Below are positions 15,601-55,960 of a DNA stretch of 64,000 nt, piece by piece. Position numbers and translations under genes: made by a program. The first letter of the stretch is position 1. Every line of letters begins with the position of its first letter. The notes under the pieces were generated by a model. It was not told the DNA's origin. It saw only the letters and a list, made by a program, of their open reading frames with translations, and ran no database searches. The DNA comes from Macrolepiota albuminosa (taxonomy: Eukaryota > Basidiomycota > Agaricomycetes > Agaricales > Agaricaceae), in contig JAMWFC010000124.1 in NCBI GenBank assembly GCA_027475525.1, positions 186,001-250,000 of the forward strand, given 5' to 3'.

Positions 15601-15606
15601 CCATGA

Positions 15607-27525: not shown

Positions 27526-27716
27526 TGTAACAGATTATACCTAGTTAATTAATTAATATATACTTATATTAATTAATTATTATTACTCTACATACATGCT
27601 GGCTGCCTTACATAAGGCAGCCAATTTTACTGTCATACTCGTAGTACTAGAATCGAATATCGATCTGGTTCTGTTGGTGTGACCGTAAGGCTAACCATAT
27701 ACTTGACTTTGTTTCA
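27526..27716 (+). repeat. Gypsy-C1 5' LTR
   Basis: A 191-bp LTR, TGTAAC to GTTTCA. It contains an AT-rich palindrome at about 27545-27581 (TTAATTAAT arms) and a 22-bp hairpin GGCTGCCTTA/TAAGGCAGCC at 27601-27622. No TGG-type primer site follows; instead a small hairpin TTGAACC/GGTTCAA lies at 27722-27740. Confidence 0.9.
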
Positions 27717-27866: not shown

Positions 27867-30800
27867 ATGGAGACCAATCAATCTACTGAACCGACACGCG
27901 ATGGTGAGACCATCGACCAGTCGTTGGCATATCCTCAATCTGCGGTGACTGACCCGGGTCGTCCCGGGTCAGAATATACAGAGGCCGAGCCTTCCCGGCA
28001 GCCTCAGGGAATGCCAGGGGGGACGCAATGGAGTGAAGTGCGGCCGACAGCTGTGCCAAGCGGTGCAGCGAGACCAGGGGCAGGTGTGGAAGACCTGGAA
28101 CAGCAGTTCGGCAGGGATCATGAATCTTCCATGCAGATTGGGAGGTCAGGGCGGCAATCCCAGAGCAGGAGTAGTGCTCAGGGACCTATCGAAGGTCGCA
28201 GACCTTCGTCGTACTTTCTGGGGAAGATGCCGAGGCAAGAGGCGGGCAGTTGGAGAGTTCCAACTGAATCCACTCCCATGACGCAACGTCAGCAGGGAGC
28301 CGGAGTGCCGCAGGAAACGACAATTCCTGAGCAAAGAACGCCAGCAGTACATTGGGAAGATGAAACGTCTGACGACGAAGAGAGTGGACGGAGTGAGTCC
28401 ACCCTTCAGGTTCAGTGTGCTATGCTATGGAAGAGATACCCTAGCATTACAAAGGATACCACGCGTGCTCGACTAGGACTGTATGTACTGAAGCACATAC
28501 GGTTGATACAGGCTAGAGGTGAAAATGTACCTCAATTGAATACTGTTGAATACATTACATTGTACGTTCAGATTCTTGAGCTGGAAGCCCAAGCATATAT
28601 GTATCGCAAGGCTAATCGAGGATCAGCTGCCTCGACTCCAGAGGGGGCAAACTTGATCCCGAATATACCCCCGGTGGCAAAGCCAGAGTTGTCTCCCCAT
28701 CTGGAAGAGGCAATGAGCAATATATATGCGCCCCAGCAAGCAGGAGAGTCTGACGAGCAGTTCGCTGCCAGGTTCGCTGCAGCACAAAGACAGAATGTAT
28801 TCAGAGGTCAGCGAAGGAGACCTCTGTCGACAACTGAATCGGTGTCTACCATACCTGTGGTAGATAGCAACCTACACGAAGCGGGGGAGCCAAGGCACCC
28901 TCACACAAAACAGGAATCAGTGGAGAATGTTCCACTGACAAATCAAGTGCCGTTGGCTGATAAGTTTGCGGAGAGAGTAGCTTATCAGCGCATGCGAAAC
29001 CAAGACCTGAAGCGCCAGGGGCACTCCTGGATAGACGACCAGGGAATTGTATTCGATGGGATAACGCCCATCGACGAGATGAGAAGGCAATATGTCCAAC
29101 GGACACGACAGCCTGACACCAGGAGAGGGGACCCGCCCACGGCGGATCCGAGCCGAGGCCCTGGAAAGCAGGTGATAGAAGAGCTAGGGGGACAGGAGAG
29201 CCCCCTGCATTGGAAGGGTGCAGAGAAAGTGCACTACACAGGTCACCGACCTGTACGTGCATTTTCCGTGGTACCTCCAGCGGAAGGTAGAAATAAAACG
29301 CCTGGAATAACTGAGGCGACAAAGGTGTATACTGAGAATATGCACCAGCGCCTCAGTAGTATAATTGACGATGCAGTAGGCGTAGCATTACGCCTGCCCG
29401 AAGGTATCAAACCGCGTAAGGCGGAGTCAAAACACATCCAACCGTACAGAGGGGAGTCCAAGTTTAGCGACTTGGAAAATTGGACGATGGATGTGTGCAA
29501 CCATCTGGCAGCATGCCAGTATGGGGGGGATCGTCTGGATCGAGAACGTGTGTTCGTGCTCCCGGAGTTCCTGGATGGACCAGCCAAAGCCTGGTTCCGT
29601 CATCATGTCTTGCACTACAATCGTGCACGACAGCAATGGACGTTCAAGGATGTAATCCTTGAATTATATAACCGGTTCGTGAGTGCATCCACCATGCAGG
29701 ATGCTCGGGAGGCGTTCATTGCAACCTCCTACACCGAACGATTAGGTGTTCAAGGTTTCTATGATACCTTGATAGACCACGCACAGAATATGTCTATTTA
29801 CCCAGATAACTGGGTAATGATTGATACCTTCCTGCGGGGGATACCTGACGCAATGAGAGAGTCCCTCATTTGTGATGACGGACTATCGCCCGAAGTAAAT
29901 ACCGTCGAGGAATTTGTAGCGCATGCATTGCGCTACGAGCAAGCCCACAAAATAGCGCGACACTTTGGGCTACATAGCTCAAAGGTTCGATCGGTAAACA
30001 AGGCTGAGCCTCGGAAGGTAGGCACCTTCTGGGCTCGTCGAAAGGAGATGGTGGGCAATATGAACCCGAGGTTCGTGGTAAGAGCAGCACCTCGGCAAGA
30101 CCGACGCTTCCGGAGCGACCGGCCGGGGGACCGTAGGGATGCACCGGCACAGGATGCTCAGAGAGGTCCGCGCCGAGAGGGTGTTCGACCGCATCAGGCT
30201 GCTGGTGAGGCTAAATTGCCGACACCGATTGGGCCACCGAAGTATGAAGCAGATCGCCCTTTCGTGGCGAGTAAGTGCTTCAAATGTGGTCGGCCTGGGC
30301 ATTTTGCGAATGCATGCCCAGTGGGTGGTGGAAAGCCTATGGGTAAGCCACGTGCCTATGTACGGGCGGCGCACACTGCTATCCCGGATGCTGAAGGGAT
30401 AGACTCCGGGAATGAACCTGATATGGAAGACGATGAGGTGGAGAACCTCATACCTGATGCACCAGAGGATGAAAACGCCTCTGTGGTAGAGGAGTTGTCG
30501 GATGATGAATACGTGGAGGTTGACGTATACGACAACGATTATTACGCCCGGGAGTCAGACTCAGAGTTCATGGGAGCTCTGACGGACTACCCGGTCAGCG
30601 CATTAGACCGTCCCGTTGGAGCAGCCAATGTTAAGGTGTATAAGGTACACCTTCGCAAGGCTCCAGAGAAGCTGGTGAGACCGGTGTTGAAGCGCGAGGA
30701 TAAGGAGTGCCTGGCGTCGTACGTTGAGGTGAATGGCCACAAGGCGTGGACATTGTGGGATTCAGGTAGTACGACTACTGGGGTGACACCCCAGTTTTGC

Positions 30801-31142
30801 CAAGTGCACGATATTTCTGTCAGTGAGTTGAAGGAGCCACTACTCCTTCAATTGGGTACTGTGGGCAGCCGAGCTGCGGTACAGTTTGGTACGCAGGCGA
30901 GTATCGTCTGTGCGAAATCAAGGACGAGGGAGTACCTTGATGTGGCGAACTTTGATCGTTACGACATGATTATAGGCACGCCGTATATGAGGAAGCACAA
31001 CGTTCTGCTGAACTTCAAGAAGAATGAGATAGTGGTGGATGGCACCACTATCCCTGCAGTGCGAGTGACCATAGATGATGGAGATGGACGTCTCCATCGA
31101 CACCGCGCCACAGAGAAGAAGGTGCTAGTCAGGCGACACTGA
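27867..31142 (+). CDS. Gypsy-C1 gag with zinc knuckle and protease
   Basis: An intact 1091-codon frame from the ATG at 27867. The N-terminal 300 residues are disordered (P, Q, G, S, E). The capsid core lies at about residues 520-700 (GESKFSDLENWTMD, WFRHHVLHYN, LYNRF). A zinc knuckle CFKCGRPGHFANAC is near 803-816, followed by an acidic stretch (EYVEVDVYDNDYY). A retropepsin-like domain has the catalytic DSGSTTTG near 965 and IIGTPYMRK near 1035. The protease is thus part of gag rather than of pol. The frame ends in TGA followed directly by CTAG and an open pol frame in the same phase, suggesting that a gag-pol fusion is made by readthrough. Confidence 0.92.
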   Translation: METNQSTEPTRDGETIDQSLAYPQSAVTDPGRPGSEYTEAEPSRQPQGMPGGTQWSEVRPTAVPSGAARPGAGVEDLEQQFGRDHESSMQIGRSGRQSQSRSSAQGPIEGRRPSSYFLGKMPRQEAGSWRVPTESTPMTQRQQGAGVPQETTIPEQRTPAVHWEDETSDDEESGRSESTLQVQCAMLWKRYPSITKDTTRARLGLYVLKHIRLIQARGENVPQLNTVEYITLYVQILELEAQAYMYRKANRGSAASTPEGANLIPNIPPVAKPELSPHLEEAMSNIYAPQQAGESDEQFAARFAAAQRQNVFRGQRRRPLSTTESVSTIPVVDSNLHEAGEPRHPHTKQESVENVPLTNQVPLADKFAERVAYQRMRNQDLKRQGHSWIDDQGIVFDGITPIDEMRRQYVQRTRQPDTRRGDPPTADPSRGPGKQVIEELGGQESPLHWKGAEKVHYTGHRPVRAFSVVPPAEGRNKTPGITEATKVYTENMHQRLSSIIDDAVGVALRLPEGIKPRKAESKHIQPYRGESKFSDLENWTMDVCNHLAACQYGGDRLDRERVFVLPEFLDGPAKAWFRHHVLHYNRARQQWTFKDVILELYNRFVSASTMQDAREAFIATSYTERLGVQGFYDTLIDHAQNMSIYPDNWVMIDTFLRGIPDAMRESLICDDGLSPEVNTVEEFVAHALRYEQAHKIARHFGLHSSKVRSVNKAEPRKVGTFWARRKEMVGNMNPRFVVRAAPRQDRRFRSDRPGDRRDAPAQDAQRGPRREGVRPHQAAGEAKLPTPIGPPKYEADRPFVASKCFKCGRPGHFANACPVGGGKPMGKPRAYVRAAHTAIPDAEGIDSGNEPDMEDDEVENLIPDAPEDENASVVEELSDDEYVEVDVYDNDYYARESDSEFMGALTDYPVSALDRPVGAANVKVYKVHLRKAPEKLVRPVLKREDKECLASYVEVNGHKAWTLWDSGSTTTGVTPQFCQVHDISVSELKEPLLLQLGTVGSRAAVQFGTQASIVCAKSRTREYLDVANFDRYDMIIGTPYMRKHNVLLNFKKNEIVVDGTTIPAVRVTIDDGDGRLHRHRATEKKVLVRRH

Positions 31143-31146: not shown

Positions 31147-34100
31147 ACAGAGGCAAGAAAGCGCCTACGGTTGAGGATGGAGAGGATGAAGAGCAAGCTC
31201 GTGTGAGCTTGCCCATGGATAGTCCGGCGGTGTTGATGCTGGAAAGCAAAGCTGTAGAGTACGAACGTACTCTGAAGAGGGGGGAGAGCCCCGAGATGAA
31301 GGAGATGAAGTGTGAAAAGGAGAGCCCCGAGATGAAGGAGATGAAGTGTGAAAAGCAGAATAAGTCTGAGGACAAGCGGCCTCAGCATGCGGCAAGCACA
31401 GAGTGCCAACCGACGTCGTCGCGAGTGAAGGTTGAGGACTTGGTAACAGATGATGACGATCAAGGACTGTTGAAGGATGAGGCGTCCTCCACACATACGA
31501 ATCGGTCAATCTGGGATCGACCAGTACCTCATCCCACATTTGAATGGGCATTTGATCCACGAATGCCTGCTGAGTGGAATGACCTAGTGGCGTCGATGTA
31601 TGCGTGGAATGGACCACGATGGACGTCGAAGGAGGAGTCATATCGTCAGGCTAGTGACGACGAGATATCATCGCCGAGTGAGGTGTTCTTCGACGGACTA
31701 TCTGTGACGTCGCGGAGAAGTAAGAGGGAAGTACCTGTGCGACTGCACATGCCGGATGACAGCGAGCTGAGGATTACTGCCCTCAGAGAGAAGTATGGCC
31801 GTCCAGCCGTACAAGCAAAGCTGTCCGGGCGCCCAGGCAAGGATGTGGACCGGAAGGGCAAAGGTAAAACCAGTGGTTTTACAAAGGAGGACATTCCGGA
31901 CCTACGATTGCAGTGGCAGCAGGAATTTGCGGATATTCTGAACGGAACCAAGGAGGAGTTACCTCCTTGGCGAGAGGTCAACCATGAAATCAACCTTATT
32001 GATGAGAATAAGGTGTATAAATATCATTTGCCTCAATGTCCAATGGCGCTGCAGCAGCAGCTCCGAGACAAGACCAATCGGTACCTGAGAGCCCACTGGT
32101 GGGAGGCTCAACCAGCCTCCCAAGCTGCTCCGCTATTGTGCATTCCGAAGAAAGATGGTACATTAAGGACGGCGTTGGATGCACGCCAACGCAATGACAA
32201 CACCGTGAAGGACGTGACGCCACTTCCGGATCAGGAAGTGATTCGAGAAGATGTGGCGAGAGCAAAGTTCAGGTCGAAAATTGACCTGACAGATGCGTAT
32301 GAGCAAGTGAGAATTCGCTTGTCTGATATCCCAAAGACAGTGTTCTCGTCAATCACGGGAACATATGTGAGCAACATTATGCAGATAGGAGATTGCAATG
32401 CTCCTGCGACATTTCAGAGGTTGATGACCTCCATCTTCCGGGATGTTATCGGGAGGTTCGTCCATATCTATTTGGACGACATATTCATATACTCCGATTC
32501 AATCGAAGAACACGAAGAGCATCTTCGTGTCATTTTCGAGCGACTGAGGTCTAACTTGCTATACCTCAAGTGGAAGAAATGCGAACTATATGCCGAGACA
32601 GTGGATTGCCTCGGACACAAGATTGATAGTCAGGGTATTCACCCTGACCAGGACAAAATCGATCGCATACGCGAATGGCGTGTGCCTCGTAACTATAATG
32701 ATGTGCAGAGATTTGTGGGACTAGTGAACTATATCGGCAATTGTCTGCCTGATATAACAGCATATACTGGACCGTTGATGTCTATTACTCAGAATGGTGC
32801 TCCATTTATATGGAGACCTATACATCAACGATGTTTTGAGATGATCAAGAGGATCTGCTCAAAGACACCAGTTATTCGTCCCATAGATCCCCGACGTGAT
32901 GAGCCAATTTGGCTCATCTGTGATGCCTCAAAGACCGGAGTAGGTGCAATGTACGGCCAGGGAAGCTCATGGCAAAATTGTCGGCCTGCAGGGTTCATGT
33001 CGAGGAAGTTCACCTCGGCCCAACAGAATTATGCGGTCCATGAGCTTGAAACGCTGGCGATACTTGAGGCGCTACTTAAGTGGGAAGATAAATTGATGGG
33101 ATATAAGATCCACATCATTACCGACCATAAAGCACTTGAGTTCTTCAAGACTCAAGCAACGTTGTCCCCCCGGCAACGCCGGTGGATTGACTATATGTCT
33201 CGCTACAACTTTGACATCACATATGTCAAAGGCGAACTGAACAAGGTGGCGGACTGTCTCTCGAGGTACTTCGAGAGCGATAGAGCAGGCGAACACCATG
33301 ATACGCATGAGTATGTCGATGCGGACATTCGTATTGATCCTCATGGCGATGATCTTCCGTATCATCGCTACAGAGAGGTGAAGGAGCATGTGGTCGAGCT
33401 TCGGGCTATGCAAGCTACCGAACTGCGACGCAGTCGACGACTGCAAGAGCGGCAAGAGGGCCGCGACATAGAGGCTGAGCAACTGGAGCAGGCCCAGCAA
33501 AAGGAGGCGACAAGGCCACACCAAAGTGAGACTGGAAGCAGTCGTGGACCGGATAGCCACGACATGACGCTCGCTGACGCGTTATCGCCTACAGGAGAGT
33601 ATCGTAACCCTCCTGTCCCTCAAACCGATGAGTACCTCCAGAAGGTGATGAGGGGCTATAGACGCGATGCGTTCTACACGGAAATCCGGCAGAACGCAGA
33701 CGCCCATCCACGCTTCAGCGTGGATGAGAACGGACTAGTCCGGATAACGAATGTTCGAGGACACGACGTGGTGTGCTTACCACGCGACCGAGCACTGCTC
33801 ACTAAGGTTGTCACTCAAGCTCATGAGGTTGTTGGTCACTTTGGAACCAACAAAACACTAGAATACCTGAGGCAGTGGTACTGGTGGCCTCAGATGCAGA
33901 AAGAAGTGATGCAGTTCTGCCAGACCTGCGAGGCCTGCCAGCGGTCGAAGACCAGCAATAGGAAGCCAGCAGGGAAGTTGCATTCCCTGCCCATCCCGAC
34001 AAAGCCGTGGGACTCCATTGGAATGGACTTTGTTGGCCCATTCCCCGAGTCCAAAGGGTATAACTACCTTTGGGTGGTCATTTGTCGAATGACGAGTATG

Positions 34101-35190
34101 GTACATTTGATACCAGTGCACACTACCATTACGGCGTCCGCGTTATCCTGGATCTACTTGAAGGAGATTGTAAGGCTACATGGCCTTCCAAGTTCAATCG
34201 TGAGCGATCGAGACACCAAGTTTACATCTCACTGGTGGCGAGAGCTTCACAAGCTCCTGGGAGCTAAACTACTCATGTCTACCTCGTTTCATCCGCAGAC
34301 GGATGGACAGACAGAGCGAGCAAATAGAAGTATTGCCCAGATCTTTCGTACGGTGGTCCGACCGGACCAACGCAACTGGGTGGATAGAATACCGCTAACT
34401 GAGTTCGCGATCAACGCGAGCGTGTCTGAGACCACGAAATATGCACCGTTCGAGCTCAACGGAGGGTACATGCCCTCCATGCTGCGCGAACTAAAGGCAG
34501 ACGGAGCCGTTCACAAAGGGGTAAAGGACTTTGCACAGCAAGCATTGGCGAATCTAGCCAATGCACACAATGCGATCATTGCCGCGCGTGTTGTACAGGC
34601 ACGACATGCAAATGATAGGCGAAGTGAGGAACCAGAACTAACGCCCGGGACGTTAGTGTAGCGCGTGTTGTACAGGCACGACATGCAAATGATAGGCGAA
34701 GTGAGGAACCAGAACTAACGCCCGGGACGTTAGTGTATCTGTCTACGGAGAACTTGAATCTCCGAAAGGAAGAGCGAGAAAGCTGTGTCCAAAGTTCATT
34801 GGACCATACCGAGTCTTGGTCGCAGAACCAAGCACGTCGAACTATGTCCTGGAGCTGCCTGCAGCTCTGCAAGCATGTCGGATTGTGCCTAAGTTCCACG
34901 TATCGTTACTTAGGCGGTATAACGCGAACGATGATGCTATGTTCCCTAATCGGGTGACTCCCAAGCCATATGATTTCGGTGCCAGTGACGAACAAGAGTG
35001 GTTCGTCGAGGACATCCTGGGCCATCGGTGGCAGGAAGGAACGCACCTCGAATTCGAGGTGCGGTGGAGTGCAGGTGATACGACATGGGAGTCGTACCAC
35101 ACATGTGCCAAGTTGGCAGCATTGGATCGGTACTTAGAACTGCAGGGCGTGAAGCGCCCAAATCAGCTTGCTAAGCGCTCACGTGCTTAG
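31143..35190 (+). CDS. Gypsy-C1 pol: RT, RNase H, integrase, chromodomain
   Basis: Open from the gag stop onward. Counting from 31203: RT has LCIPKKDG near residue 312 and YLDD near 423; RNase H has ICDASKTG near 572 and ITDHKALEF; the integrase zinc segment has HFGTNKT and CQTCEACQRSK (about 880-920); the integrase core has DFVGPF, VSDRDTKF and the TDGQTERAN glutamate. The C-terminal chromodomain is at 34990-35130 (EWFVEDILGHR, FEVRWSAGDTTWE). Two breaks occur late: seam 6 (34584-34737) makes a false TAG, and a real-looking one-base deletion near 34757 (CTCCGAAAGG where C0 and D have one more base) shifts the frame before the chromodomain. A 36-bp in-frame duplication lies at 31286-31357. 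Confidence 0.88.
31286..31357 (+). repeat. 36-bp in-frame tandem duplication in C1 pol
   Basis: Two copies of a 36-base unit encode ESPEMKEMKCEK twice in the linker before RT. C0 and D lack the second copy. Unlike the 77-bp seams it keeps the frame and has a different period, so it looks like genuine replication slippage. Confidence 0.75.
34584..34737. repeat. 77-bp direct duplication, seam 6
   Basis: GCGCGTGTTGTACAGGCACG and the following bases recur at 34661. It separates integrase from chromodomain in C1 and generates an in-frame TAG (34659-34661). C0 and D have one copy. Probable artefact. Confidence 0.9.
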
Positions 35191-35421
35191 ATTGATGGCA
35201 GTGATAAGATGAAGGCCGGATCAGTCGGATCTCGGATCGACCGAGTATCTGATCCTGATCGGATCACAAGTTGTCCAGATAGATAAGATGGAAGTTGATC
35301 TATCTGATGAGATAATGCGGATCGTGATGCAGAGGAGAGGGTCGGATCAGGTTATGTAACCTGATGATGGGGAATTTAATGTGTTTTTTCCCACCGACAC
35401 GTCGACGTTTTTTGTGATACC
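35191..35421 (+). other. Spacer between C1 pol and third ORF
   Basis: A 231-bp non-coding spacer rich in GATC-containing repeats (CGGATC, TGATC). It ends in a T-rich stretch (GTGTTTTTTCCCACC) before the ATG at 35422. It could hold a splice acceptor or an internal promoter for the third ORF; the acceptor is much clearer in gypsy-D. Confidence 0.45.
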
Positions 35422-38277
35422 ATGTCGTACCCTTACCAGCGTACGACCAGTGAGCAACAGCCTCAGAACCCACAGGGTTCTGGAGGAGGGGGGGATCGCC
35501 CCCAGCAAAACGTTCAGCAGTCTGTAACGACGCCGACTGTGGCGTCGTATCCAGTGGTGTCCCAGTTTGGGCAGAACCCAGCCCAATTTGGACAACCTCC
35601 GCAGTTTTACCCGCCGTTCTTCCAGATGCCGTATTTCCCAGGACCAGCTGGTCCTGGACAGCAGATGGGGGGACAGGTTATGTGGGGAATGCCAATGCCG
35701 ATGCAGCAGACGCAGACCCAGAGTGCAAGTACACTCCTTTCGGATGAGAAAGCACTAACTGCGCCACAGGTAGCACCCATGGACGTGGACGATGACGCGG
35801 GGCGTCAACAGCAAGTAAAGGGCGAGGTGGTGCAACCTCGACGACAGCGAGAAAGGACGCCGCCCCCGCAAGAGACGTATAGAAGAGACCGGAGGCGATC
35901 GCCTCCGAGGAGTACCGGGGCACGAGGAGGCGGGCCTCGGGAAATGGTTGGGCGCAGACGGGATGAGCCGGCAGCAAGGACGCAAAATCGAGGTCAACCC
36001 CGACCTCGAACACCGCCTCGACGGGCCTCTCCGTCACCCTGTCGTGCACCATCTCCGCGGCGCTTCTCGTACGCAGAGAAAGGAAAAGGAAAAGAGATCG
36101 GAACGCCGTTGGAGGTGTTGGACCCTCAGGCAGAGGCAGTCTGGCGACGCCTCATATCTGCCGGCCAGCGAGTACCACCGGAGTCCGCGTTTTTGGCGGA
36201 TCCGGTGGCTCAGGTGGTGATTACGGGCCTGCTCGATGAGATCGTTATGCTGCAACAGCGTAACGACAATACTATCAAGACATTTACGAACGCTATGAAG
36301 AAGCGTCCGTCGTCGTCGTTGGAGCAACCTGAGGCAAAACGCCTCAGAGCGCGAGATGCAGGACCGGAAGTTGAGGTGCGGGAATTGGGAGAGCTCACTC
36401 CGACCCCGGCCGAGTTACATGACGAGCTCGTGGAGGTTGACAACAGTTTACGAGGACTGTCCTCGTCAACACATGCGCCCTCCCAGCAGTCAGGGGCGAA
36501 GCGGCAGGATGAGGTGGTCCTGTCGGAAGTGGAGTTTGGAGCAGATGTTCCGCGAGGAGCAGACAGAGTTGTGATGCGGTTTGGAGCAGTGGTGCAGTTT
36601 GAGGCACCACTGAGGGCGTATGCGTCCGCGGTCCCCATAAAGGACACGAGGACGGACGCCGAGGTCGAAGGGCGACTATTAACGTTGGCTGCGCTCGGTC
36701 TGAATGAACCGAGCGACGGGAGTGATTATGGGGAGTCATCAGATGAGACCCCCTCAGAAGGAGAAACCCCCGCTAAACGCCGAGTGCGTTTAGACAAGAA
36801 ACGCAAGAAGGAGGCTCGGAGGAAGCACGAGGCCGCCCGGCAGGCAAAGGTCGATAAAGACCGGGTGGAGCAGGCCACAGGCCGTATTCCTGATGGCCTC
36901 GGGGTGTTTGTCAGCGGGACGCTGGTGGAGCGGTCCAACTGGTTCTACAGCGGGGCACTTGACCGCTATTTCTATTACTCCCGGCTCACCAATACAGTAT
37001 TTGTGAGCGACGAAGCCTTGGCCGCGAAGGCGCACGAGGAGGAAAAGGGAGAGAGGTATCACCATACCTCGAAGGAGTTGAATCGAGTGGTACCGAGGGG
37101 ATTCCCGATGAATCCCCAGCAGTTGCGAAAGCTTTATGAGCTTTCGCAGAACAAGTTTACGTCAGTGTCTTTGCGCACTGAGGCCTATTATCTGTTGCGC
37201 GAGTTTCAGCGCATCAGTATCAACTATTATACGTCGGTGAGGGATAGGACGATGACTCTGGTGTGTTCACCAGAGTACGAGCACATTTTGCCCCCTCTGG
37301 ATCTATCATCCCACCACATGAACATCGCGGTCATGCCGACCCCAGACGGGTACCTGCGATGGAAGGACCGAGCCGGAAGACCGTTTTTTACGCTTTCCGG
37401 GTTTGATTCCGAAGGTGTACGTTTCACCTTCGATCTGGACAAGCTGGCGCAGAACGTTCTCTACTTCTGTCGACCAGGGATGATGAATTCGGTATACGGC
37501 ATTGCAGTGGATCGGGCTTACCGCATTCACTGGCGCACTCTGCTGGGCCATGCCCTGACGTGTGGACTGTCCCCTTCGGGAAGAGCTCGGGGACGCTTTG
37601 CAAGGCTGTTAGCCTTGATTCTCGCGCATCCTGGGCTGTATTGTGAGGCGGTCGCGGATTACGACGCCGCCAACCCCAGCAACCCATTCGCACCCATGAG
37701 CTGGACTGACATCCAGTTCCGACCCCCGTACTTCGACGCGGCTAATGCCGTCAACATCACCGATGCTTACGTGCTACAGGCTATGATAGCCAACCGCGTA
37801 CCTATTGAGTGGGTGGACCACGCCTATACCTTCGGCGTGGTCTACCTCGAGAACCAGTTCCTTGCGGCCACAGCCTCCATTGACCAGTTCCGTGAGGTCG
37901 ACGATGAACGTCATCGTCGACTGGACCTCTATGGAGAGCCCGCAGCCATCACACGGTGGGACGATTGGCGATTGCCCACGGACAATGATATGATTCGTCT
38001 CCACGCACTGCTCGCCCGCGAATCCGATCAAGGTCATGAGTACCTTGAAAGTGGACTATATTATCCAGTGGGGATGAACCCCAACCGTCGAGACTTATGG
38101 CAACGCCGCTCTCGACACGGGCCCTATCCCCCCTCTCCGTCACACCCCTCCACGTCAGTTCAGGCTCCTACAGCCTCAACATCGTCGGGTCCCATCGCCT
38201 CATCATCCTCGTTTAACGTCGACACTGAGATGAGGAATGATACAGCTCGCGAGTTGTCACGTCCGCCGTCTGCGTAA
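35422..38277 (+). CDS. Third ORF of gypsy-C1, function unknown
   Basis: An intact 951-codon frame between pol and the 3' LTR, the place of env in retroviruses. I recognise no known domain. Residues 1-100 are rich in P, Q and G; 130-240 are basic and rich in R, S and P (RRDRRRSPP) like a nuclear or RNA-binding tail. A short conserved segment (AVWRRLISAGQRVP) lies near 240. An acidic patch (DYGESSDETPSEGE) and a basic helix (KKRKKEARRKHEAARQ) precede a folded-looking region at about 487-893, starting RIPDGLGV and including NWFYSGALDRYFYYS, IAVDRAYRIHWRTL and PIEWVDHAYTFGVVYLE. The tail is S/T/P-rich. No signal peptide or membrane segment is evident, so it is not an ordinary envelope protein. 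Homologous frames exist in D and C0. Confidence 0.88.
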   Translation: MSYPYQRTTSEQQPQNPQGSGGGGDRPQQNVQQSVTTPTVASYPVVSQFGQNPAQFGQPPQFYPPFFQMPYFPGPAGPGQQMGGQVMWGMPMPMQQTQTQSASTLLSDEKALTAPQVAPMDVDDDAGRQQQVKGEVVQPRRQRERTPPPQETYRRDRRRSPPRSTGARGGGPREMVGRRRDEPAARTQNRGQPRPRTPPRRASPSPCRAPSPRRFSYAEKGKGKEIGTPLEVLDPQAEAVWRRLISAGQRVPPESAFLADPVAQVVITGLLDEIVMLQQRNDNTIKTFTNAMKKRPSSSLEQPEAKRLRARDAGPEVEVRELGELTPTPAELHDELVEVDNSLRGLSSSTHAPSQQSGAKRQDEVVLSEVEFGADVPRGADRVVMRFGAVVQFEAPLRAYASAVPIKDTRTDAEVEGRLLTLAALGLNEPSDGSDYGESSDETPSEGETPAKRRVRLDKKRKKEARRKHEAARQAKVDKDRVEQATGRIPDGLGVFVSGTLVERSNWFYSGALDRYFYYSRLTNTVFVSDEALAAKAHEEEKGERYHHTSKELNRVVPRGFPMNPQQLRKLYELSQNKFTSVSLRTEAYYLLREFQRISINYYTSVRDRTMTLVCSPEYEHILPPLDLSSHHMNIAVMPTPDGYLRWKDRAGRPFFTLSGFDSEGVRFTFDLDKLAQNVLYFCRPGMMNSVYGIAVDRAYRIHWRTLLGHALTCGLSPSGRARGRFARLLALILAHPGLYCEAVADYDAANPSNPFAPMSWTDIQFRPPYFDAANAVNITDAYVLQAMIANRVPIEWVDHAYTFGVVYLENQFLAATASIDQFREVDDERHRRLDLYGEPAAITRWDDWRLPTDNDMIRLHALLARESDQGHEYLESGLYYPVGMNPNRRDLWQRRSRHGPYPPSPSHPSTSVQAPTASTSSGPIASSSSFNVDTEMRNDTARELSRPPSA

Positions 38278-38411
38278 ATTTTGTAGGCGGCTCATCTCCT
38301 TTTCAATTCATACTGTCGGTTAACGTCGGCGTTGTATTTTTTGACAGATGACTTGGACATTTTCGAGCCGTGGAGGACCAGAGCTCCTCCACATTGACTT
38401 AATTAGTGACC

Positions 38412-38565
38412 TGGACAAAAACGTGTCCCTCCTTACATCGAGACTGGCTACCAGTCTCAAAGGGGGGCATGTAACAGATTATACCTAGTGGACAAAAACG
38501 TGTCCCTCCTTACATCGAGACTGGCTACCAGTCTCAAAGGGGGGCATGTAACAGATTATACCTAG
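38412..38565. repeat. 77-bp direct duplication, seam 7
   Basis: TGGACAAAAACGTGTCCCTC and the following bases recur at 38489. The unit includes the polypurine tract (AAAGGGGGGCA) and the first 19 bases of the C1 LTR, so the LTR start appears twice (38470 and 38547). An LTR boundary is where a k-mer assembler would break. Probable artefact. Confidence 0.9.
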
Positions 38566-38737
38566 TTAATTAATTAATATATACTTATATTAATTAATTA
38601 TTATTACTCTACATACATGCTGGCTGCCTTATATAAGGCAGCCAATTTTACTGTCATACTCGTAGTACTAGAATCGAATATCGATCTGGTTCTGTTGGTG
38701 TGACCGTAAGGCTAACCATATACTTGACTTTGTTTCA
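38547..38737 (+). repeat. Gypsy-C1 3' LTR
   Basis: A 191-bp LTR matching 27526-27716 with one visible difference in the hairpin loop (38622-38643 reads GGCTGCCTTA-TA-TAAGGCAGCC; the 5' LTR has CA). It is preceded by the polypurine tract AAAGGGGGGCA and followed by the duplicated CGTCA. Confidence 0.92.
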
Positions 38738-39296
38738 CGTCATTGATGAGAAGGGCATTCATCCGGATATGGATAAGCTCGACCGAATCCGAGAGTGGCG
38801 TACTCCACGCACATATAATGATATCCAACGATTTGTCGGACTGGTGAACTATATTGGCAACTTCTTGCCAGACATCACTGCATACACTGGGCCACTTATG
38901 GCCATGACCCAGAATGGGTCACCGTTTCATTGGAGACCACTGCATCAGCGGTGTTTTGAGATGATTAAGCACTTATGGCCATGACCCAGAATGGGTCACC
39001 GTTTCATTGGAGACCACTGCATCAGCGGTGTTTTGAGATGATTAAGCACATCTGCACGAAAACGCCAGTCATCTAGCCAATTGACCCACGCATCAACGAG
39101 CCCATCTGGCTCATTTGCAATGCGTTGAAGACTGGGGTTGGGGCCATGTTTGGCCAGGGTAAAACGTGGCAGACTTGCCGACCAGGGGGATTTATGTCCC
39201 GTAAATTCAATGCTGCTCAGCAAAATTATGCTGTGCATGAGTTAGAAACACTCGCAATCCTGGAAGCCCTCCTAAAGTGGGAGGATAAACTGATGG
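38738..39296 (+). pseudogene. Gypsy-D pol, RT end and RNase H
   Basis: It continues the gypsy-D frame from 27525: DEKGIHPDMDKLDRIREWR (the RT connection region), then RNase H (GVGAMFGQG, NYAVHELETLAILEALLKW). A TAG replaces the arginine codon in the C1 equivalent VIRPIDP near 39075, and the first RNase H aspartate is changed (ICNALKTG against ICDASKTG in C1). Seam 8 (38893-39046) adds a false shift. The reading is cut at 39296 by the gypsy-E LTR. Confidence 0.85.
38893..39046. repeat. 77-bp direct duplication, seam 8
   Basis: CACTTATGGCCATGACCC and the following bases recur at 38970 in gypsy-D RT. C1 has one copy. Probable artefact. Confidence 0.9.
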
Positions 39297-40102
39297 TGTC
39301 ACGACCCCTCCCCCCCGGAACCTCCCCGGGACACCCCCGGAGTCCCATCCGGGAACCTCTTCCGTCAATCCCACAGCGCACCCCGCCCCCACCGCTACCG
39401 ACGCCGCCCTCACACGCATCAAGGACCACCATCAGCCATCAACGATCGCCATCAGCCAGCCCCCGGGACCCCTGCATCACGGACCCCGGGATCACCCGCC
39501 ATCAACGATCAGATCACGCGGCTCGCATACGGCCATCACGCATCACGCCCCACGCATCACGACTCCCTCCGCACCAATTGATCGCGCGTCCCCACACGCG
39601 CGATCCCGGTATACAGTCCCCGGCCGCTACTCAATGGCCCCCGGAACTCATCCCAGACACCCCGGAATCCCGAGACACGATCCGTAGTACTTATAGTATA
39701 GCTCCCCGTTGTATTCGACAGTCTTGATATTACATACTTTGCATAACTGTTACTTGGATATTGCGTGCCCTCTGTTTGACTGGTACGCCTCGTTTGGTAC
39801 GCTTCGACTGGCACGCCTTGGTATTCGCGTGCTATAAGTTTGGTACGCACTTCGCGACTCTTAAATTACTAACTTGGTCTCGTCTTAGAACCTCCGGTTC
39901 ACGACTCGACCCCCTCTAACCCTCAGCTACTCTCATCCAAAACCCCCGGACTCTAGTCCCCTCTCCCGGGATTACTCCTGTCCTCGTCTTGAACCCCGGA
40001 GTCCTAGCCCCGGAGTTCCAGACACCCGAGTATCCGTAGATCAAGTCCGCATCGTAAGGGCGTCGCTTTCCCGGAAAGCCCCCGATTCAGCGGAACCTGA
40101 CA
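39297..40102 (+). repeat. Gypsy-E 5' LTR
   Basis: An 806-bp LTR beginning TGTCACGACCCC and ending GGAACCTGACA. It contains CATCACG-rich repeats at 39470-39570 and a TATA-like stretch (CTTATAGTATAG) near 39690. Its boundaries are fixed by the solo LTR at 56368-58134, which is flanked by a 5-bp duplication. Confidence 0.85.
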
Positions 40103-40498
40103 TAATATCAAGACTCTTTCCTTACACCGTTCTTGATGGCTACGTATACTCACACCTACTACCCCACGGGGTACCAGACCGACCCTTACGGACGCCCGGT
40201 ACCCGACCACTACTCCGCGCAGACCCCCCGCCCTGTCTACCCACCCCTCCCATACGAACCTCAGTACCTCCACCGCCACTGGGCCCCCGACCCATCCTTC
40301 TATGATCTGGGGCCCTCAGCCAGTTGGGCCCCTCCGCCCAACCTAGCCATGGCACGACCCGTGGAGGTCCCCTCGTACCGGAGCATTCCCGGGGGCCTGC
40401 CGGAGACCCCTCCTGCACCCAGTGGGCCTCGCCCGATTCCCCCCAGCGAGGGCCCCTTTGCACCCACCCCCTACTACGGTTACCAGCGCCCCGTCCCC

Positions 40499-42749: not shown

Positions 42750-42762
42750 AGACCCCGAAGAC

Positions 42763-43787: not shown

Positions 43788-43825
43788 ACCCCCGGACGAG
43801 CCCCCACCACCCCCGGACTCCAGTC

Positions 43826-48893: not shown

Positions 48894-49767
48894 CAAGGTG
48901 TTTTTTGATGGACTGTCTGTGACCTTGCAGAGAGGCAAAGAGAGTAAGCCCATGCAACTGCACACACCGGACAAGAGTGAGCTGAGGATTACTGCCCTCA
49001 GAAAGAAGTATGCTCATCCAGCAGCACAAGCAAAGTTAACTGTATGTCCATGCCAAGACATGGACCAGAAAGGCAAAGATAAAACTATTGGTTTTATGGA
49101 GGAGGATATCCTGAACCTGCAGCTGCAGTGGCAGCAGGAATTTGCAGATATCCTGAATGGAACCAAGGAGAAATTACCTCCTTGGCATGAAGTCAATCAT
49201 GAAATCAACCTTATTGATGAGAATAAGGTCTATAAGTACCATCTGCCACAATGTCCAATGGCGTTACAGCAGCAGCTTAGAGACAAGACCAATCAGTACT
49301 TAAAAGCTCACTGGTAACATCCCAAGCTGCACTGCTATTGTGCATCCCAAAGAAGGATGGTATCTTGAGGACCATGTTGGATGCTCACCAATGCAATGAT
49401 AACACAGTGAAAGATGTTATGCCACTTCTGGATCAGGAAGTGATTTGAGAAGATGTGGCAAAGGCCAAGTTTAGGTCAAAAATTGACCTGACAAATGCAT
49501 ATGAGCAAGTGAGAATTTGCTTGTCTGACATTCTGAAGACAGTGTTCTCATCAATCACAGGAACATATGTTAGCAACATCATGCAGATAGAAGACTGTAA
49601 TGCTCCTGCAATGTTTCAGAGGTTGATGACCTCTATCTTTCAAGATGTCATAGGAAGGTTCATCTATATATATCTGGACAACATATTCATATATTCTGAT
49701 TCAATTGAAGAACATGAAAAACATCTTCGTGTCATCTTTGAGCAACTGAGGTCCAATTTACTGTACC
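48894..49767 (+). pseudogene. Gypsy-C0 pol, linker and RT
   Basis: It resumes C0 pol after gypsy-D (FFDGLSVT) and runs through the RT: LCIPKKDG-like near 49340 with a stop before it, DLTNAYEQVRI, and the catalytic motif as YLDN at about 49675, where GAC has become AAC. Loss of the second catalytic Asp makes the RT dead. It ends at the duplication GTACC (49763-49767) before solo LTR H. Confidence 0.86.
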
Positions 49768-50286
49768 TGTCAGAGGACTCCTCATTTCTTCCTTCTTTCA
49801 CTCCTTATTCCTTCACTCTCCTTTTGTTTATTTCCTTATTTCTTCTATCATTCTCTCATTTTGCTGTTTCTATTCTCTCAACACTATTTGTTAGTACTAT
49901 TCTCAACCTTTGAGGTGCTCTAGTTCTTTAGCTATCATTCAGACAAGTGTGGGCCCTTCAGCACTGCTTCTAGACTGCTTATATAAGCTGGAGTTTGTCT
50001 TTCTAACTTCCAAAGTCTGGAGTTTTCCTGCCTTGTTTGCACAGTTGTTTGGTTAGTCAATTTTTGAGTTTTTGAGGTTTTGTTGTACTGTACAGTTGTT
50101 TCCCATGCTTCAGAAGCCCCAGAAGTGTCCAACCTGGCATAGAGAATCCCTAGACTTGTTTTCTTTGGATTTCCCTCTGCCAGGTGAGTAGTTATTATGA
50201 TATTGTTAGTACATACTCTAATACACTTTGGATCTCCCTCTGCCAGCTGTGTGACTAAGCCACAGCCTCTAGAGGTTGCCCTTACA
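49768..50286 (+). mobile_element. Solo LTR H, copy 1
   Basis: A 519-bp insertion from TGTCAGAGGACTCC to GGTTGCCCTTACA, flanked by GTACC on both sides (49763-49767 and 50287-50291). Removing it rejoins C0 RT at CTGTACCTCAAATGG. A related 415-bp copy sits at 60896-61310. There is no coding content; TG/CA ends and a 5-bp duplication indicate a solo LTR left by recombination. Confidence 0.9.
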
Positions 50287-52840
50287 GTACCTCAAATGGA
50301 AAAAATGTGAGCTATATGCCAAGACAGTAGACAGCCTTGGACACAAGATTGATAGTTAGGGTATTCACTCTGACCAGGACAAAATTGATCACATATGTGA
50401 ATGGCATGTGCCACAAACCTATAATGATGTCCAACAATTTGTTGGACTGGTAAACTATATCAGCAATTGTCTGCCCAATATAACAGCATATGCTGGACCA
50501 CTGATGTTCATCACTCAGAATGGGGCTCTATTTATATAGAGACCAATACACTAGTGTTGCTTCAAGATGATTAAGAGGATCTGCTCAAAGACACTAGTCA
50601 TTCGGCCAATCAACCCCAGGTATGATGAGCCGATTTGGCTCATCTGTGATGCCTCAAAGACTGGAGTTGGAGCAATGTATGGCCAGGGAAGTTCCTGGCA
50701 GAATTGCCATCCAGCAGGGTTCATGTTGAGGAAGTTCACTTCAGCACAACAGAACTATGTGGTCCATGAGCTGGAAATGCTGGCAATACTTGAGGTGCTC
50801 CTCAAGTGGAAAGATAAATTGATGGGATACAAGATCCACATCATTATGGACCATAAAGCACTTGAGTTCTTCAAGACTCAAGCAACGCTGTCCCCCTGGC
50901 AATGCTGGTGGATTGACTATATGTCCTGATACAACTTTGACATCACATATGTCAAAGGAGAATTGAACAAGATTGCCAACTGTCTCTTGAGATACTTTGA
51001 GAGTGATAGAGCCAGTGAACACCATGAATTGCATGACTATATCAATGCAGATATTTGTATTGACCCCCAAGGTAATACTATACCATTGCTACAAAGAAGT
51101 GAAAGAACATGTGGTAGAGCTTTGGGCCATGCAAGCAAATGAGCTTTAATGTAGTCAATGCTTGCAAGAGCAGCAAGAAGCCTGAGATCTAGAGGCTGAG
51201 CAACTAGAGCAGGCTCAGCCAAAGGTAATGGTAACGCCAAGTCACAATGCAACAGGCAGTGGCCTTGGACTGTATGGCCAAGACATTATGCTTGCTGACG
51301 TGTTGTCATCTGCAGAAGAGTATTCTGACTCTTCTGTGCCTCAAGGCAATGAGTTCCTATGTAATGTACATAGAAACTACAACCATGATGCATACTATGC
51401 TGAAATCCTGCAGAATGCAACAGCTCACTCATAATTTAGTGTGGATAAGAAAGGACTGATCTGGATAATGAATGTTTGAGGTTGCAAAGTGGTATGTTTA
51501 CTACACAACTGCACTATCATCACCCAGACCATTACTCAAGCTTGCAAAACTGTTGGGCACTTTGGAACCAACAAAATAGTGGAATACCTGAGGCAGTGGT
51601 ACTGGTGGCCACAGATGCAGAAGGAAGTGATAAAATTCTGCCAGACCTGTGAGGCCTGCCAGTGGTCAAAGACCAGCAATAAGAAACCAGCCAGGAAGTT
51701 GCATTCTCTGCCTATCTCAACAAAGCCTTGGGACTCCATTGGAATGGACTTTGTTGGCCCATTCCCCGAATCCAAAGGTTATAATTACTTTTGGGTGGTA
51801 ATTTGCTGCATGACCAGTATGGTGCACCTGATACCAGTGCACACAACCACAACTGTGTCAGAATTATTCTGGATAAACTTGAAGAAGATTATATGGCTAC
51901 ATAGCCTTCCCAGTTCAATTGTGAGCAATAGAGATGCAAAGTTCATGTCTCACTGGTGGCGGAAGCTGCATAAGCTTCTGAGAGCTAAACTGCTCATGTC
52001 AACCTTGTTCATCTGCAGACAGATGAACAGACAGAGCAAGCAAATAGGAGTATTGCTCAGATATTCCATACGGTGGTCTGACTAAACCAATGCAACTGGG
52101 TAGATAGAATACCTCTGATGGAGTTTGTGATTAATGCAAGTGTGTTGGAGACTACAAAATATGCACCGTTCAAACTCAATGGAGGATACATGCTCTCCAT
52201 GATCTGAGAACTTAGAGAGGATGGAGTCGTTCACAAAGGTGTGAAGGACTTAGCATGAAAAGCATTGGAGAATCTCACCAACATGCACAATGCTATCATT
52301 GCAGCATGTGTCATATAGGCACAACATGTGAACAATAAGTGGAGTGATGATTCTGAGCTAATGCCTGGGATGTTAGTATACTTGTCGACTGAGAATCTGA
52401 ACCTTCCAAGAGGGAGGATGAGAAAGTTGTGCCCAAAATTTATTGGGCCATACAGGGTCTTGGTTATGGAACCAAGCATATTGAACTATGTTCTAGAGCT
52501 GCCTGCAGTTCTGCAAGCAGATTGGATCATGCCTAAGTTTCATGTGGCATTACTTAGGCAATATAATATGAACAATGATGCTATGTTTTCTAATTGGGTG
52601 ACACCCAAGGCATATGATTTTGGGGCCAGTGACAAACAAGAGTGGTTTGTCAAAAAAATCCTGGGCCATTGGTGGCAGGGAGGAACACACCTTGAAATCG
52701 AGGTATGATGAAATGCTGATGATACGACATAGGAGTTGTACCACACATGTGCCAAGCTGGCAGCTTTGGATTGGTACTTAGAGCTGCAGGACGTGAAATG
52801 CCCAAGTCAGCTTGCTAAGCGCTCATGTGCTTAGTCTGAT
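50287..52840 (+). pseudogene. Gypsy-C0 pol, RT end to chromodomain
   Basis: It is collinear with C1 32560-35190: RT connection, RNase H (ICDASKTGVGAMYG near 50645), integrase zinc segment (HFGTNK, CQTCEACQ), core (DFVGPFPESKG) with the second catalytic region changed to VSNRDAKF, and a degraded chromodomain (EWFVKKILGHWW near 52640). Stops and frame changes are frequent, largely at former CpG sites. Confidence 0.88.
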
Positions 52841-53071
52841 AACTGTGATAAGATCTAGACTGGATCAGTCAGAATCTGAATCTGGGAGCAGATTTGATTC
52901 TGATTGGATCAGTTAGAGTTGGATAGATAAGATAAAGATAATCATTCATCTGATGAGATAGCGCAGATCAGGATGCAGAGATGTTATTTGGATCAGATTA
53001 TGTAACCTGATGACTGGGAATTTTCTTGTTTTTTTTTTCTACTGAGAGACTTACACATTGTCATTTTTGCC

Positions 53072-55960
53072 ATGTCATACCCATATCAAAGTACAGCTAA
53101 TCAGTCACAGCCTCAGAACCTACAGAGGTCTGGTGAAGAGGGGGAGCAGCCTCTACAACAACAACCTCAATTGCAACCAATAACAACACTGAGTGTGGCG
53201 TTATTGCCCATGGTGTCTCAGTTTGGACAGACCTCTGCCCAATTTAGACAGATGCCTCAATTCTTTCTGCAACACATGCCAATGCCCTACTTTCCAGGAC
53301 CAAACAGTGCTGGACAACAGATGGAACAACTGAAGGTGATGTGGGGTATGCCAATGCAGTTTCTGCAGGTGCAGACCCAGAGTGCAAGTGAACATACTAA
53401 TAGCGCCACAGATAATGCCCATAGAAGTTGACAGGGAGTCATTGCACACAGGGCCAGGATGAGGCAAGGTTGCTCAACCTCAACGACAACAAGATAGGAC
53501 ACCGCCTTCTCGAGAGGCTTACAGATGGGAGCGGAGGTGATCACCTTTTAGAAATATAATAGCGAGAGGAGGAGCACCCCACAAGTTTATAGGGCATAGG
53601 TGAGATGAGGGTGCACTGCAAGCACAAACACAAGGTTAGCTATGACCTCAAACACTGCTGCAACCATGAACGCTGCCATGTCAACAATTGCCCTCCCCTC
53701 AGCATGCTCTGTCTCCATGTCAGCTGATGTATGCAGAGAAGGGAAAAGGAAAGGAAGTGGTGATATCTTCTGAGATCTTAGACCTACAGGGTGAGATGGT
53801 GTGGAGATGCTTGGTGTCTGCCAAACAGAGAGTGCCATCAGAATTGTTGTTTTTAAAGGATCTTATTGCTCAGGTGGTGATAACTGGGCTGTTGGACAAG
53901 ATTGTCATGCTGCAACAGTGTAATGAGAATACCATCAAAACCTTTGCAAACATCCTGAAGAGGTGGCCAGTGTCACTGGAAGAGCAGGCTGAGGCAAAGC
54001 ATCTTGGAGCCTAGAGCACAGCATGTGACAAGAGGCTGCAAGAGGCAGGAGTTGTAGCTGAGGTGCAGAAGGCACCTCAGCATCAGAAGAAAGCAGAAGA
54101 GTTGACTCCAACTCCATCTGACCTGTACAATGAACTCATGCAGGTGGATGTCAGCTTACAAGGACTGTCCTCATCAGCACATGCTTCAGCCCATTCTGCA
54201 GGGCCTACAAGGCAGGAAGGTGAGGTAGTGTTGTCAGAGGTCACATTTGCAAAGGGAGTTTCCACTAGAGCTGATAGCTCCACCATGTTGTTCATGTCAG
54301 TGGTGCAATTTGAGGCACCACTGGATTCCTACACCTCCATGCCTGTGTTGAATGACATCCAGCCAGATGATGAGGTAGAAGGCTGGCTACCTACATTGGC
54401 ATCACTCAGACTAGCAGAGCTGAGTGATGAGAGCAATTATGGAGAGCATCCAGAGTCAACCCCATCAGAAGAAGAGACCACCGTTAACCACAGACTGCAG
54501 TTAAACAAAAATAAAAAGATCAATCCCAGGACCCAGCATGAGGCTACATGGCAGGCAAAAGTCAACTTGGACTGGGTGGAGCAGGCCATAGGCAGAATTC
54601 CTGACAGACTAGGAGTGTTTATTGACAGCAGGTCTGTTGAACAATCCAACTGGTTCTTTGATGGTGTGCTGGACCGCCACTTCTATTGCTCTTATATCTC
54701 CAACACCGTCTTTGTTGGAGACCACACTGTAGCCACCCTTTACCACAAGGCAGAAAGAGATGAAAGATATGCCCTGACCAACCCAGAGGTTGGAAAGGTA
54801 GTACCTTGGGAATTTCCAATAAATCCTCAGCAATTGCAAAAGCTCAGAGAGCTTTTGCAGAACAAATTCAAGGCTGTGTCAATGAGGAGAGAGGCATATT
54901 ACCTGATGCATAAGTTCTAGCACATCAGCTATAACTTTGATGCCTCCCTCCATGACCACATGATGGCTCTGGCATGCACACCAGAGTATGATCACATTAC
55001 TCTCCCACTTGACCTGTCCTCCCACCACATGAACTTGGTGGTCATGCCAACCTCTAGGGTTACTTGCAGTAGAAGGACCACAACAGGAAGCCATTTTTCA
55101 CACTAACTGGCTTTGACTCTGAAGATACCCAGTTTACTTTTGAACTGAACAAGCTAGCTCAGAACATCTTGTACTTTTGCCATCTGGATATGCAAAACTT
55201 GGTGTTGGGCATTGCAGTAGACTATGCCTACCACATCCACTGGAGAACAATAATGGGCCATGCCCTCACCCAAGCCCTCTCACCCTTGGGATGAGCCCAT
55301 GGATGTTTTGCAAGGCTGCTGGCCTTGATCATTGTGCACCTCAGGCTGTATTATGAAGCCATTGCAGCCCATGATGCCGCTTATCCCAAGAGTCTGTTCC
55401 AACCCATGAGCTAGACATCTATTCATGTTACCTAAGTTTGAGGATGCCATTGCCGTAAACATCATGGATACAGATATATTGCATACATTGATAGCAAACC
55501 ACATTCCCATCAAATGGATTGACCATGCCTATACCTTTGGCATGGTCTTCCTCAAAACTCATTTCTTTGAAGCAAATACCTCAATCAACTTGTACCATGA
55601 GGTCAACAACAAACATCATCATTGACTTGACCAATATGGCCAGCTGCCAGCTGTTGTCCAGTGAAATGGCTGAAGAAATTCCACCATTGATGATATGATC
55701 TGTCTGCACACACTATTAACACATGAATACTCACAAGGTCACAACTATGTCCAGTGGGGGCTGTACTACTCGGTTGGGCTGAACCCCAACCAACATGATC
55801 TTTGGCAGTGCCAGTCTTGCCATGAGCTATATTCATCCCCATCTAAGGTACAACCTACCACAGATCAGGCTCCAGTCACCTCAACATTGGCCATGCCAGT
55901 CGCCTCAACACTGAGATGAGGATTGACCTAGCTAGTGAGTTGGCACATCTGCCATCTGCA
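53072..55960 (+). pseudogene. Gypsy-C0 third ORF, decayed
   Basis: Homologue of the C1 third ORF with the same start (MSYPYQ) and order. The N-terminal part reads QPQNLQRSG and YFPGPNSAGQQ, then breaks near 53430. The conserved region begins RIPDRLGVFIDSRSVEQS near 54595, loses the frame at a TAG near 54918, and can be followed in pieces (IKWIDHAYTFGMVFLKT near 55520) to about 55960. The presence of all parts shows that the ancestral element already carried this ORF. Confidence 0.85.

What the first reader, a model, noticed from the sequence alone, without database searches (positions are those of the whole stretch)
35422..38277. A conserved 950-codon third ORF in the env position of a fungal chromovirus, not an envelope protein
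Seen: three independent element copies (C1 35422-38277, D 45496-48359, C0 53072-55960) carry a long ORF between the chromodomain and the 3' LTR. Two element families with different LTRs (C and D) share its C-terminal 400 residues (RIPDGLGV, the DRAYRIHWRTL-like and EWVDHAYTFGVV-like motifs) while the N-terminal half is disordered and has diverged. No signal peptide or hydrophobic membrane span is visible, and the N-terminal half is basic and arginine-rich. Inference: an additional, selectively maintained element protein, perhaps acting in the nucleus on RNA, chromatin targeting or silencing. I recognise no known family.
Basis: partly seen in the sequence, partly recalled or inferred. Interest (0 to 1): 0.88.

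Follow-up and report, generated by a model that had tools for sequence, protein, structure and literature searches.

The report
Third gene of a mushroom retrotransposon
A jumping element in a fungus close to the termite-farmed mushroom Termitomyces carries a third gene of unknown function that selection keeps intact, and its coding DNA is unusually rich in small perfect hairpins.

Summary
The ORF is real: element C1 (27526-38737) carries an intact 951-codon ORF3 between the chromodomain region and the polypurine tract. The window's D and C0 copies are broken, but open copies exist elsewhere: 14 of 30 C loci and 20 of 30 D loci examined (the best-scoring ones). Within-family dN/dS is 0.18 in both families, so ORF3 is maintained by selection. 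It is not envelope-like by hydropathy and matches no Pfam, PHROG or PDB sequence at cut-off. Two AlphaFold models are poor (pLDDT 53.5 and 58.9), so the fold is unknown. All 74 hits of the widest search are Termitomyces. Unexpected: C1 holds 52 short perfect hairpins (1.0 expected), written by synonymous codon choice; D has a shorter-stemmed version. In ORF3 of both families inherited synonymous changes avoid the hairpin arms about sixfold to sevenfold, chance stems little; in pol the effect is weak. Hairpin positions are not shared between C and D, so the cause (selection, or self-templated copying during reverse transcription) stays open.

The parts
27526..27716 (+). 5' LTR of C1 (191 bp)
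   Evidence: one mismatch to the 3' LTR; CGTCA target duplication at 27521-27525 and 38738-38742
27867..31142 (+). gag-protease ORF of C1, 1091 aa
   Evidence: zf-CCHC and RVP_2 above Pfam cut-off
31203..35190 (+). pol of C1: RT, RNase H, integrase, then the chromodomain region; the frame is interrupted at an exact 77-nt tandem duplication (34584-34737) of the kind seen 12 times in the window
   Evidence: Pfam, sister copy, duplications; open pol frames of 1311 codons exist elsewhere in the genome
35191..35421 (+). pol-ORF3 spacer, hairpin-rich, with a 20-nt inverted repeat at 35346-35365 and a T-tract of variable length before the ATG
35422..38277 (+). ORF3 of C1, 951 codons, intact
   Evidence: dN/dS 0.18 within its family
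35809..36066 (+). arginine-rich stretch, residues 130-215, family C only
   Evidence: 28% R, net charge +18; mostly a gap in D
36136..36291 (+). short N-terminal segment shared by C and D, residues 239-290
   Evidence: alignment A1
36772..36879 (+). basic segment, residues 451-486
   Evidence: net charge +10; helix in both models
36880..38136 (+). conserved C-terminal domain, residues 487-905, mostly helical in weak models
38531..38546 (+). polypurine tract before the 3' LTR
38547..38737 (+). 3' LTR of C1
22152..48893 (+). element D (LTRs 22152-22324 and 48721-48893, CAAGG duplication), split by C1; its ORF3 (45496-48359) is broken
48895..55960 (+). 3' part of the older C-type element C0 (its 5' part lies at 17280-22151); its ORF3 (53072-55960) is broken

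Best explanation
ORF3 is a third gene of a chromovirus clade in Termitomyces-like fungi. It encodes a soluble protein of about 950 residues: a mostly disordered-looking, fast-evolving N-terminal half with basic clusters, one short conserved segment, and a conserved, mostly helical domain of about 420 residues. Shown: the gene lies inside the element, recurs beside pol at many copies, begins at an ATG kept in all 22 distinct C spacer sequences aligned, and has been under purifying selection in two families. Inferred: it acts in trans on the element's own ribonucleoprotein or chromatin stage (nuclear transport, integration-site handling, or escape from CpG-methylation silencing) and not in cell entry. 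I put its identity as a selected non-envelope element gene near 0.9 and this class of mechanism near 0.35; the figure below is for the mechanism. How it is expressed (spliced RNA or internal promoter) is not known.
For: dN/dS 0.18 pooled over 12 distinct open C and 17 distinct open D sequences; shared non-CpG transitions 0.14 and transversions 0.19 relative to opportunity; 29 of 41 C-type pol places have an ORF3 place within 3 kb downstream on the same strand; no membrane span or signal-like start; KR-rich clusters in C and D; copies carry CpG-transition decay, as expected of methylated repeats (the link to methylation is established knowledge, not tested here).
Against: Nothing tested shows nuclear location, RNA or chromatin binding. 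The arginine-rich run is absent in D. KR clusters are common in unrelated proteins. The fold is unknown, so an enzyme is not excluded. Singleton non-CpG changes also lie below neutral expectation (0.52 and 0.20), so part of the low ratio is not cleanly explained.
Confidence: 0.35

Rival explanations
1. ORF3 is a particle-assembly or packaging protein that works with Gag on the element's hairpin-rich RNA.
For: Long accessory protein with basic segments; both families that carry it also carry the hairpins.
Against: No sequence similarity to the element's Gag (best E 1.7). Nothing links ORF3 to the hairpins except presence in the same two families.
Confidence: 0.25
2. ORF3 is an enzyme of unrecognised fold, as the GDSL and DEDDy ORF3s of bdelloid LTR elements are enzymes.
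For: The conserved domain has blocks of kept W, D, H, Y and R residues; enzyme-type ORF3s are on record elsewhere (PMC5408684).
Against: No Pfam match at cut-off; no known catalytic motif recognised.
Confidence: 0.15
3. ORF3 is a host gene captured by the ancestor of the clade and since diverged.
For: The protein is not Gag- or Pol-related and was found only in Termitomyces names.
Against: No non-element relative was found; but the searches of the own genome scored only the best 48 and 68 candidates, so a distant single-copy gene could be hidden.
Confidence: 0.1
4. ORF3 is a diverged envelope protein.
For: Position between pol and the 3' LTR only.
Against: No signal-like start and no membrane-span hydropathy; five cysteines in 951 residues.
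Confidence: 0.03

Closest known systems
Non-envelope ORF3s of bdelloid rotifer LTR retrotransposons (PMC5408684; abstract and passages seen)
   Same: A third ORF downstream of pol that is not an envelope gene and is specific to element families.
   Different: Those are GDSL esterases, DEDDy exonucleases or transmembrane or coiled-coil ORFs; ORF3 here matches none of the first two in Pfam and has no membrane span.
[quoted passage not shown] section 5 and passages read, figure not seen)
   Same: Chromodomain Gypsy elements of fungi with an extra ORF are on record.
   Different: The text seen does not say where that ORF lies or what it encodes, so identity with ORF3 could not be tested; no selection test is described in the parts read.
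VANC anti-silencing proteins of Arabidopsis VANDAL elements (PMC10398659, PMC5735166; search listing with start of abstract only)
   Same: Element-encoded accessory protein in copies that the host silences; a working analogy only.
   Different: DNA transposons of plants; no sequence match to any Pfam family here, and no anti-silencing assay.
Quasipalindrome-associated template-switch mutation (PMC7202029, PMC7954356; search listing with start of abstract only)
   Same: A copying error at imperfect inverted repeats; would give strand-symmetric hairpins at no fixed positions, as seen here.
   Different: Described there for E. coli and great apes, not as a trait of a retroelement genome; no birth event was shown here.

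Membership tests
Ty3/Gypsy chromovirus (the element) | LTRs with target duplication and polypurine tract; gag, protease, RT, RNase H, integrase in Gypsy order | tested here: met
Ty3/Gypsy chromovirus (the element) | C-terminal chromodomain on integrase | tested here: inconclusive
   Pfam Chromo in a sister copy at E 0.0017, 18.7 bits, below the 25.1 cut-off; SH3_Tf2-1 above cut-off
Retroviral or gypsy envelope | signal peptide and transmembrane span | tested here: not met
   hydropathy scan only: highest 19-residue mean 1.42, N-terminal 11-residue maximum -1.5; no dedicated predictor was on hand
dUTPase, GDSL or DEDDy accessory domains of LTR elements | recognisable domain in ORF3 | tested here: not met
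   no Pfam match at cut-off for C1 ORF3 or a D ORF3; distant homology not excluded
Known protein fold | structural match to a solved structure | tested here: inconclusive
VANC-like anti-silencing factor | loss of methylation at the element when expressed | not testable with these tools
   needs an experiment
Ordered RNA structure selected on the RNA strand (hairpins) | G.U tolerated more than A.C in stems; compensatory change | tested here: inconclusive
   one-mismatch 8-bp stems of C1: 29 GU, 25 AC, 63 other (random background about 3, 6, 25 per run). C1 versus C0: 20 of 26 doubly changed pairs stay Watson-Crick, 12 of these explained by CpG decay in both arms; the 8 others compare with 5-9 in slid controls

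The most novel reading that the evidence does not exclude
The C/D chromovirus clade carries a genome peppered with dozens of short perfect hairpins in coding and non-coding DNA. They are written at synonymous sites and kept perfect while the element replicates, either by self-templated copy-correction during reverse transcription or because they serve packaging or protection, and ORF3 is the clade-specific protein that handles this hairpin-rich nucleic acid.
Probability: 0.12. Interest if true: 0.85.

Novelty: new variant of a known kind. Interest (0 to 1): 0.6.

Why it matters
Non-envelope third genes of LTR elements are on record, but a long one kept under selection in two families of one fungal genus, without a recognisable relative, gives a concrete protein to test for nuclear, particle or anti-silencing action. 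The hairpin pattern is stranger: if it is copy-correction, a mutational drive is written over a retroelement's coding sequence; if it is selection, a retrotransposon carries a dispersed structural code. Both can be tested by RNA probing and by sequencing young insertions.

Tried and rejected
Pol read-through into ORF3: considered because some copies are open upstream of the ATG; rejected because the distance from the pol match to ORF3 varies by non-multiples of three (742, 743, 745, 747, 748, 750, 751 nt and others). Splicing: the D copy of the window has a T/C-rich tract ending in CAG before its ATG, C1 has no AG between its last T-tract and the ATG, and by eye I saw no convincing donor in the two leaders; undecided. 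Spacer as structured RNA: z -2.44, 2 of 200 shuffles as good; 4 of 63 pairs with double changes; weak. Fold searches from weak models (PDB, BFVD, VIA) gave nothing usable; absence of a listed family excludes none. Viral contigs: one scan, 19 pattern matches, none a relative. NCBIfam and PADLOC were not searched.

Hairpins. Fixed functional positions: rejected, since 2 of 20 C hairpins of ORF3 have a D hairpin within 6 columns against 2.16 expected. Protein-binding motif: no common sequence seen. Ascertainment of the arm depletion: chance stems (arm 4 with loop 9-30, arm 5 with loop 9-40; four reference copies) show none at p under 0.05, but arm 6-7 with loop 12-120 shows a mild one (p 0.006-0.039). 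The pol 3' end repeats the depletion only weakly (arm at least 6: 7/153 against 51/515, p 0.048; arm at least 7: 5/93 against 57/594, p 0.24). In C, singletons too are fewer in arms (2/238 against 54/1529, p 0.026). Not confined to the clade: 20.1 kb of 3' flanks of 19 C copies hold 13 with arm at least 8 against 2.3 expected, and window 56000-64000 holds 7 against 1.2; some of that DNA may belong to related elements, which I did not check. One C1 hairpin is counted twice because it lies in a 77-nt duplication. Literature on hairpins in LTR elements: listings only, nothing on point. On ORF3-like genes; on anti-silencing; PMC3248453: passages only.

Full report
The frame at 35422-38277 exists and encodes 951 residues. 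It sits inside a complete LTR element, C1: LTRs 27526-27716 and 38547-38737 differ at one of 191 positions, CGTCA flanks both ends, and AAAGGGGGG precedes the 3' LTR. Gag with zinc knuckle and protease, then RT, RNase H and integrase lie before it; a sister copy gives SH3_Tf2-1 and a sub-threshold chromodomain. C1 lies inside D (LTRs 22152-22324 and 48721-48893, 7 differences in 173, CAAGG duplication), and D lies inside an older C-type element, C0, whose gag and pol pieces lie at 17280-22151 and resume at 48895.

The window is G000:C93:186001-250000 of a 100.1-Mb assembly in 129 contigs. A search with C1 ORF3 gave 50 matches (48 of 2237 candidates scored); one with the Termitomyces protein P0004 gave 198 matches of D type in pieces (68 of 1948 candidates scored); both are lower bounds. 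Of the 30 best C loci, 14 have no stop in the matched stretch (12 distinct sequences; two of them, L015 and L020, match only from residue 15); of the 30 best D loci, 20 are open over more than 900 codons within the piece held (17 distinct). C-type pol was found at 41 places, and 29 have an ORF3 place within 3 kb downstream on the same strand; 31 of the 50 ORF3 matches are so paired; capped lists limit both numbers.

Selection. Pooled dN/dS is 0.177 over the 12 C and 0.181 over the 17 D sequences. Because copies decay by CpG transitions, I repeated the test by mutation class on 24 distinct C sequences (28 of 30 loci; one with a shifted frame and one truncated were left out, four duplicates collapsed). 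Shared variants have N/S relative to opportunity of 0.14 (non-CpG transitions) and 0.19 (transversions), lower in the C-terminal domain (0.09, 0.12) than in the N-terminal half (0.18, 0.31). Shared CpG transitions give 0.79 and singleton CpG transitions 1.12. Against a clean picture, singleton non-CpG classes also lie below 1 (0.52, 0.20). C against D is saturated at synonymous sites.

Relatives. Three searches found 3, 19 and 74 proteins, all with Termitomyces names: the first two only T32_za158, the third also T159_Od127, Mi166 and J132. They scored 7991, 7992 and 402 candidates that share short words, and element genes are often left out of annotations (general knowledge), so absence elsewhere is weak evidence. 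The host is probably a Termitomyces or near it; not tested further. C and D differ more in ORF3 (35% over the matched stretch) than in gag (43%) and pol (68-82%, but 43% over the first 126 residues); C1 and C0 likewise (ORF3 48-58%, gag 69-71%, pol 65-86%).

The protein: a Q/P-rich start, an arginine-rich run (130-215) in C, a segment shared by C and D (about 239-290), an acidic stretch (331-450, net -14), a basic segment (451-486, net +10) and the conserved domain (487-905). A hydropathy scan shows no span or signal-like start. No Pfam match reaches its cut-off, PHROGs gives none, PDB sequences none below E 0.3. AlphaFold models of the C1 domain (30 sequences, pLDDT 53.5) and of its D relative (66 sequences, 58.9) are mostly helical and confident only in parts. 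Fold searches gave nothing usable. The fold is unknown, not shown to be new.

Expression. The ATG preceded by CC is kept in 22 of 22 distinct C spacer sequences while the last T-tract before it varies from 4 to 14, so translation from that ATG is likely and frame continuity with pol is not kept. The window's D copy has a pyrimidine tract ending in CAG before its ATG. Spliced RNA and an internal promoter are both open.

An unexpected property of the same DNA. C1 is full of short perfect inverted repeats. With arm at least 8 and loop up to 12, gag has 15 against 0.40 in dinucleotide shuffles, pol 14 against 0.33 and ORF3 15 against 0.43 (30 shuffles each). Shuffling synonymous codons, which keeps protein and codon usage, leaves 0.87, 1.13 and 0.53. 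With loop up to 8, C1 as a whole has 52 against 1.0. Two D stretches of the window and two D copies are enriched 3.7-6.1-fold at arm 6 or more and 4.9-9.5-fold at arm 7 or more, with none at arm 9. Three other stretches of the window (517-8355, 8356-17200, 39301-44290) hold 5 with arm at least 8 against 2.5 expected; 56000-64000 holds 7 against 1.2 and 16 kb of E. coli 6 against 1.2; flanks of C copies are enriched too, 13 against 2.3. Loops of 3-7 are preferred. Of 20 hairpin sites in ORF3, 15 are perfect in at least 17 of 24 copies.

Inherited variation avoids the arms. Shared non-CpG synonymous variants in ORF3: C 3 of 238 opportunities in arms against 142 of 1529 outside (p 1.5e-6; p 1.4e-6 to 5.5e-5 with three other reference copies); D 4 of 243 against 153 of 1473 (p 5.2e-7). 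D singletons are not significantly fewer in arms (13/243 against 117/1473, p 0.19); C singletons are (p 0.026). CpG transitions are not fewer in arms, and D singleton ones are more frequent there (18/48 against 54/265, p 0.015). Chance stems show little, long-loop stems a mild depletion, the pol 3' end a weak one. The shared arm variants leave the partner unchanged in all but one copy; among all pair states that differ from C1, one changed on both sides and 98 did not. One-mismatch stems hold GU and AC about equally (29, 25). C and D hairpins do not coincide. Equal GU and AC, free positions and both strands alike fit self-templated copying during reverse transcription better than selection on RNA folding; the near-absence of paired changes within families does not favour copying, which should sometimes spread a change to both arms. 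I leave the cause open.

Mechanism of ORF3: I favour a trans-acting nuclear or ribonucleoprotein accessory role (0.35) over an assembly protein (0.25), an unknown enzyme (0.15), an old host capture (0.1) and an envelope (0.03). Nothing here links ORF3 to the hairpins except that both mark families C and D.

Noticed in passing
27526-38737 (C1); also D and C0: Short perfect hairpins throughout coding and non-coding DNA (52 with arm at least 8 and loop up to 8 against 1.0 expected), built by synonymous codon choice; inherited synonymous changes avoid their arms in ORF3 of C and D.
   Followed up: partly
7889, 18248, 20166, 26248, 27340, 34584, 38412, 38893, 40499, 42596, 42763, 43633: Twelve exact tandem duplications of 77 nt, one of them in the pol frame of C1; the constant length points to untrimmed overlaps of an assembler with word length 77 (inference).
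   Followed up: partly
17280-55960: Triple nesting in one orientation: C0 split by D, D split by C1.
   Followed up: partly
C family loci L001-L030: Copies decay mainly by CpG transitions: 142 non-stop plus 7 stop singleton CpG transitions at 482 opportunities against 91 other singleton transitions at 2371.
   Followed up: partly
35346-35365: A 20-nt inverted repeat in the pol-ORF3 spacer; its right half and loop are the same in all 11 spacers aligned, its left half varies at one position in two.
   Followed up: no
38621-38644: A 24-nt perfect palindrome in the C1 3' LTR with a TATA-like core.
   Followed up: no
45440-45463: T/C-rich tract ending in CAG ahead of the D ORF3 start, like a 3' splice site; not seen in C1.
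   Followed up: partly
alignment of 24 C copies, columns 2092-2119 (C1 residues about 695-705): Seven copies differ from the commonest form at five consecutive codons, all by synonymous changes, beside a hairpin; perhaps recombination between lineages.
   Followed up: no
517-8355: Another LTR element on the - strand (gag, protease and pol ORFs) with no ORF of 200 codons or more between pol and its 3' LTR and no excess of hairpins.
   Followed up: no
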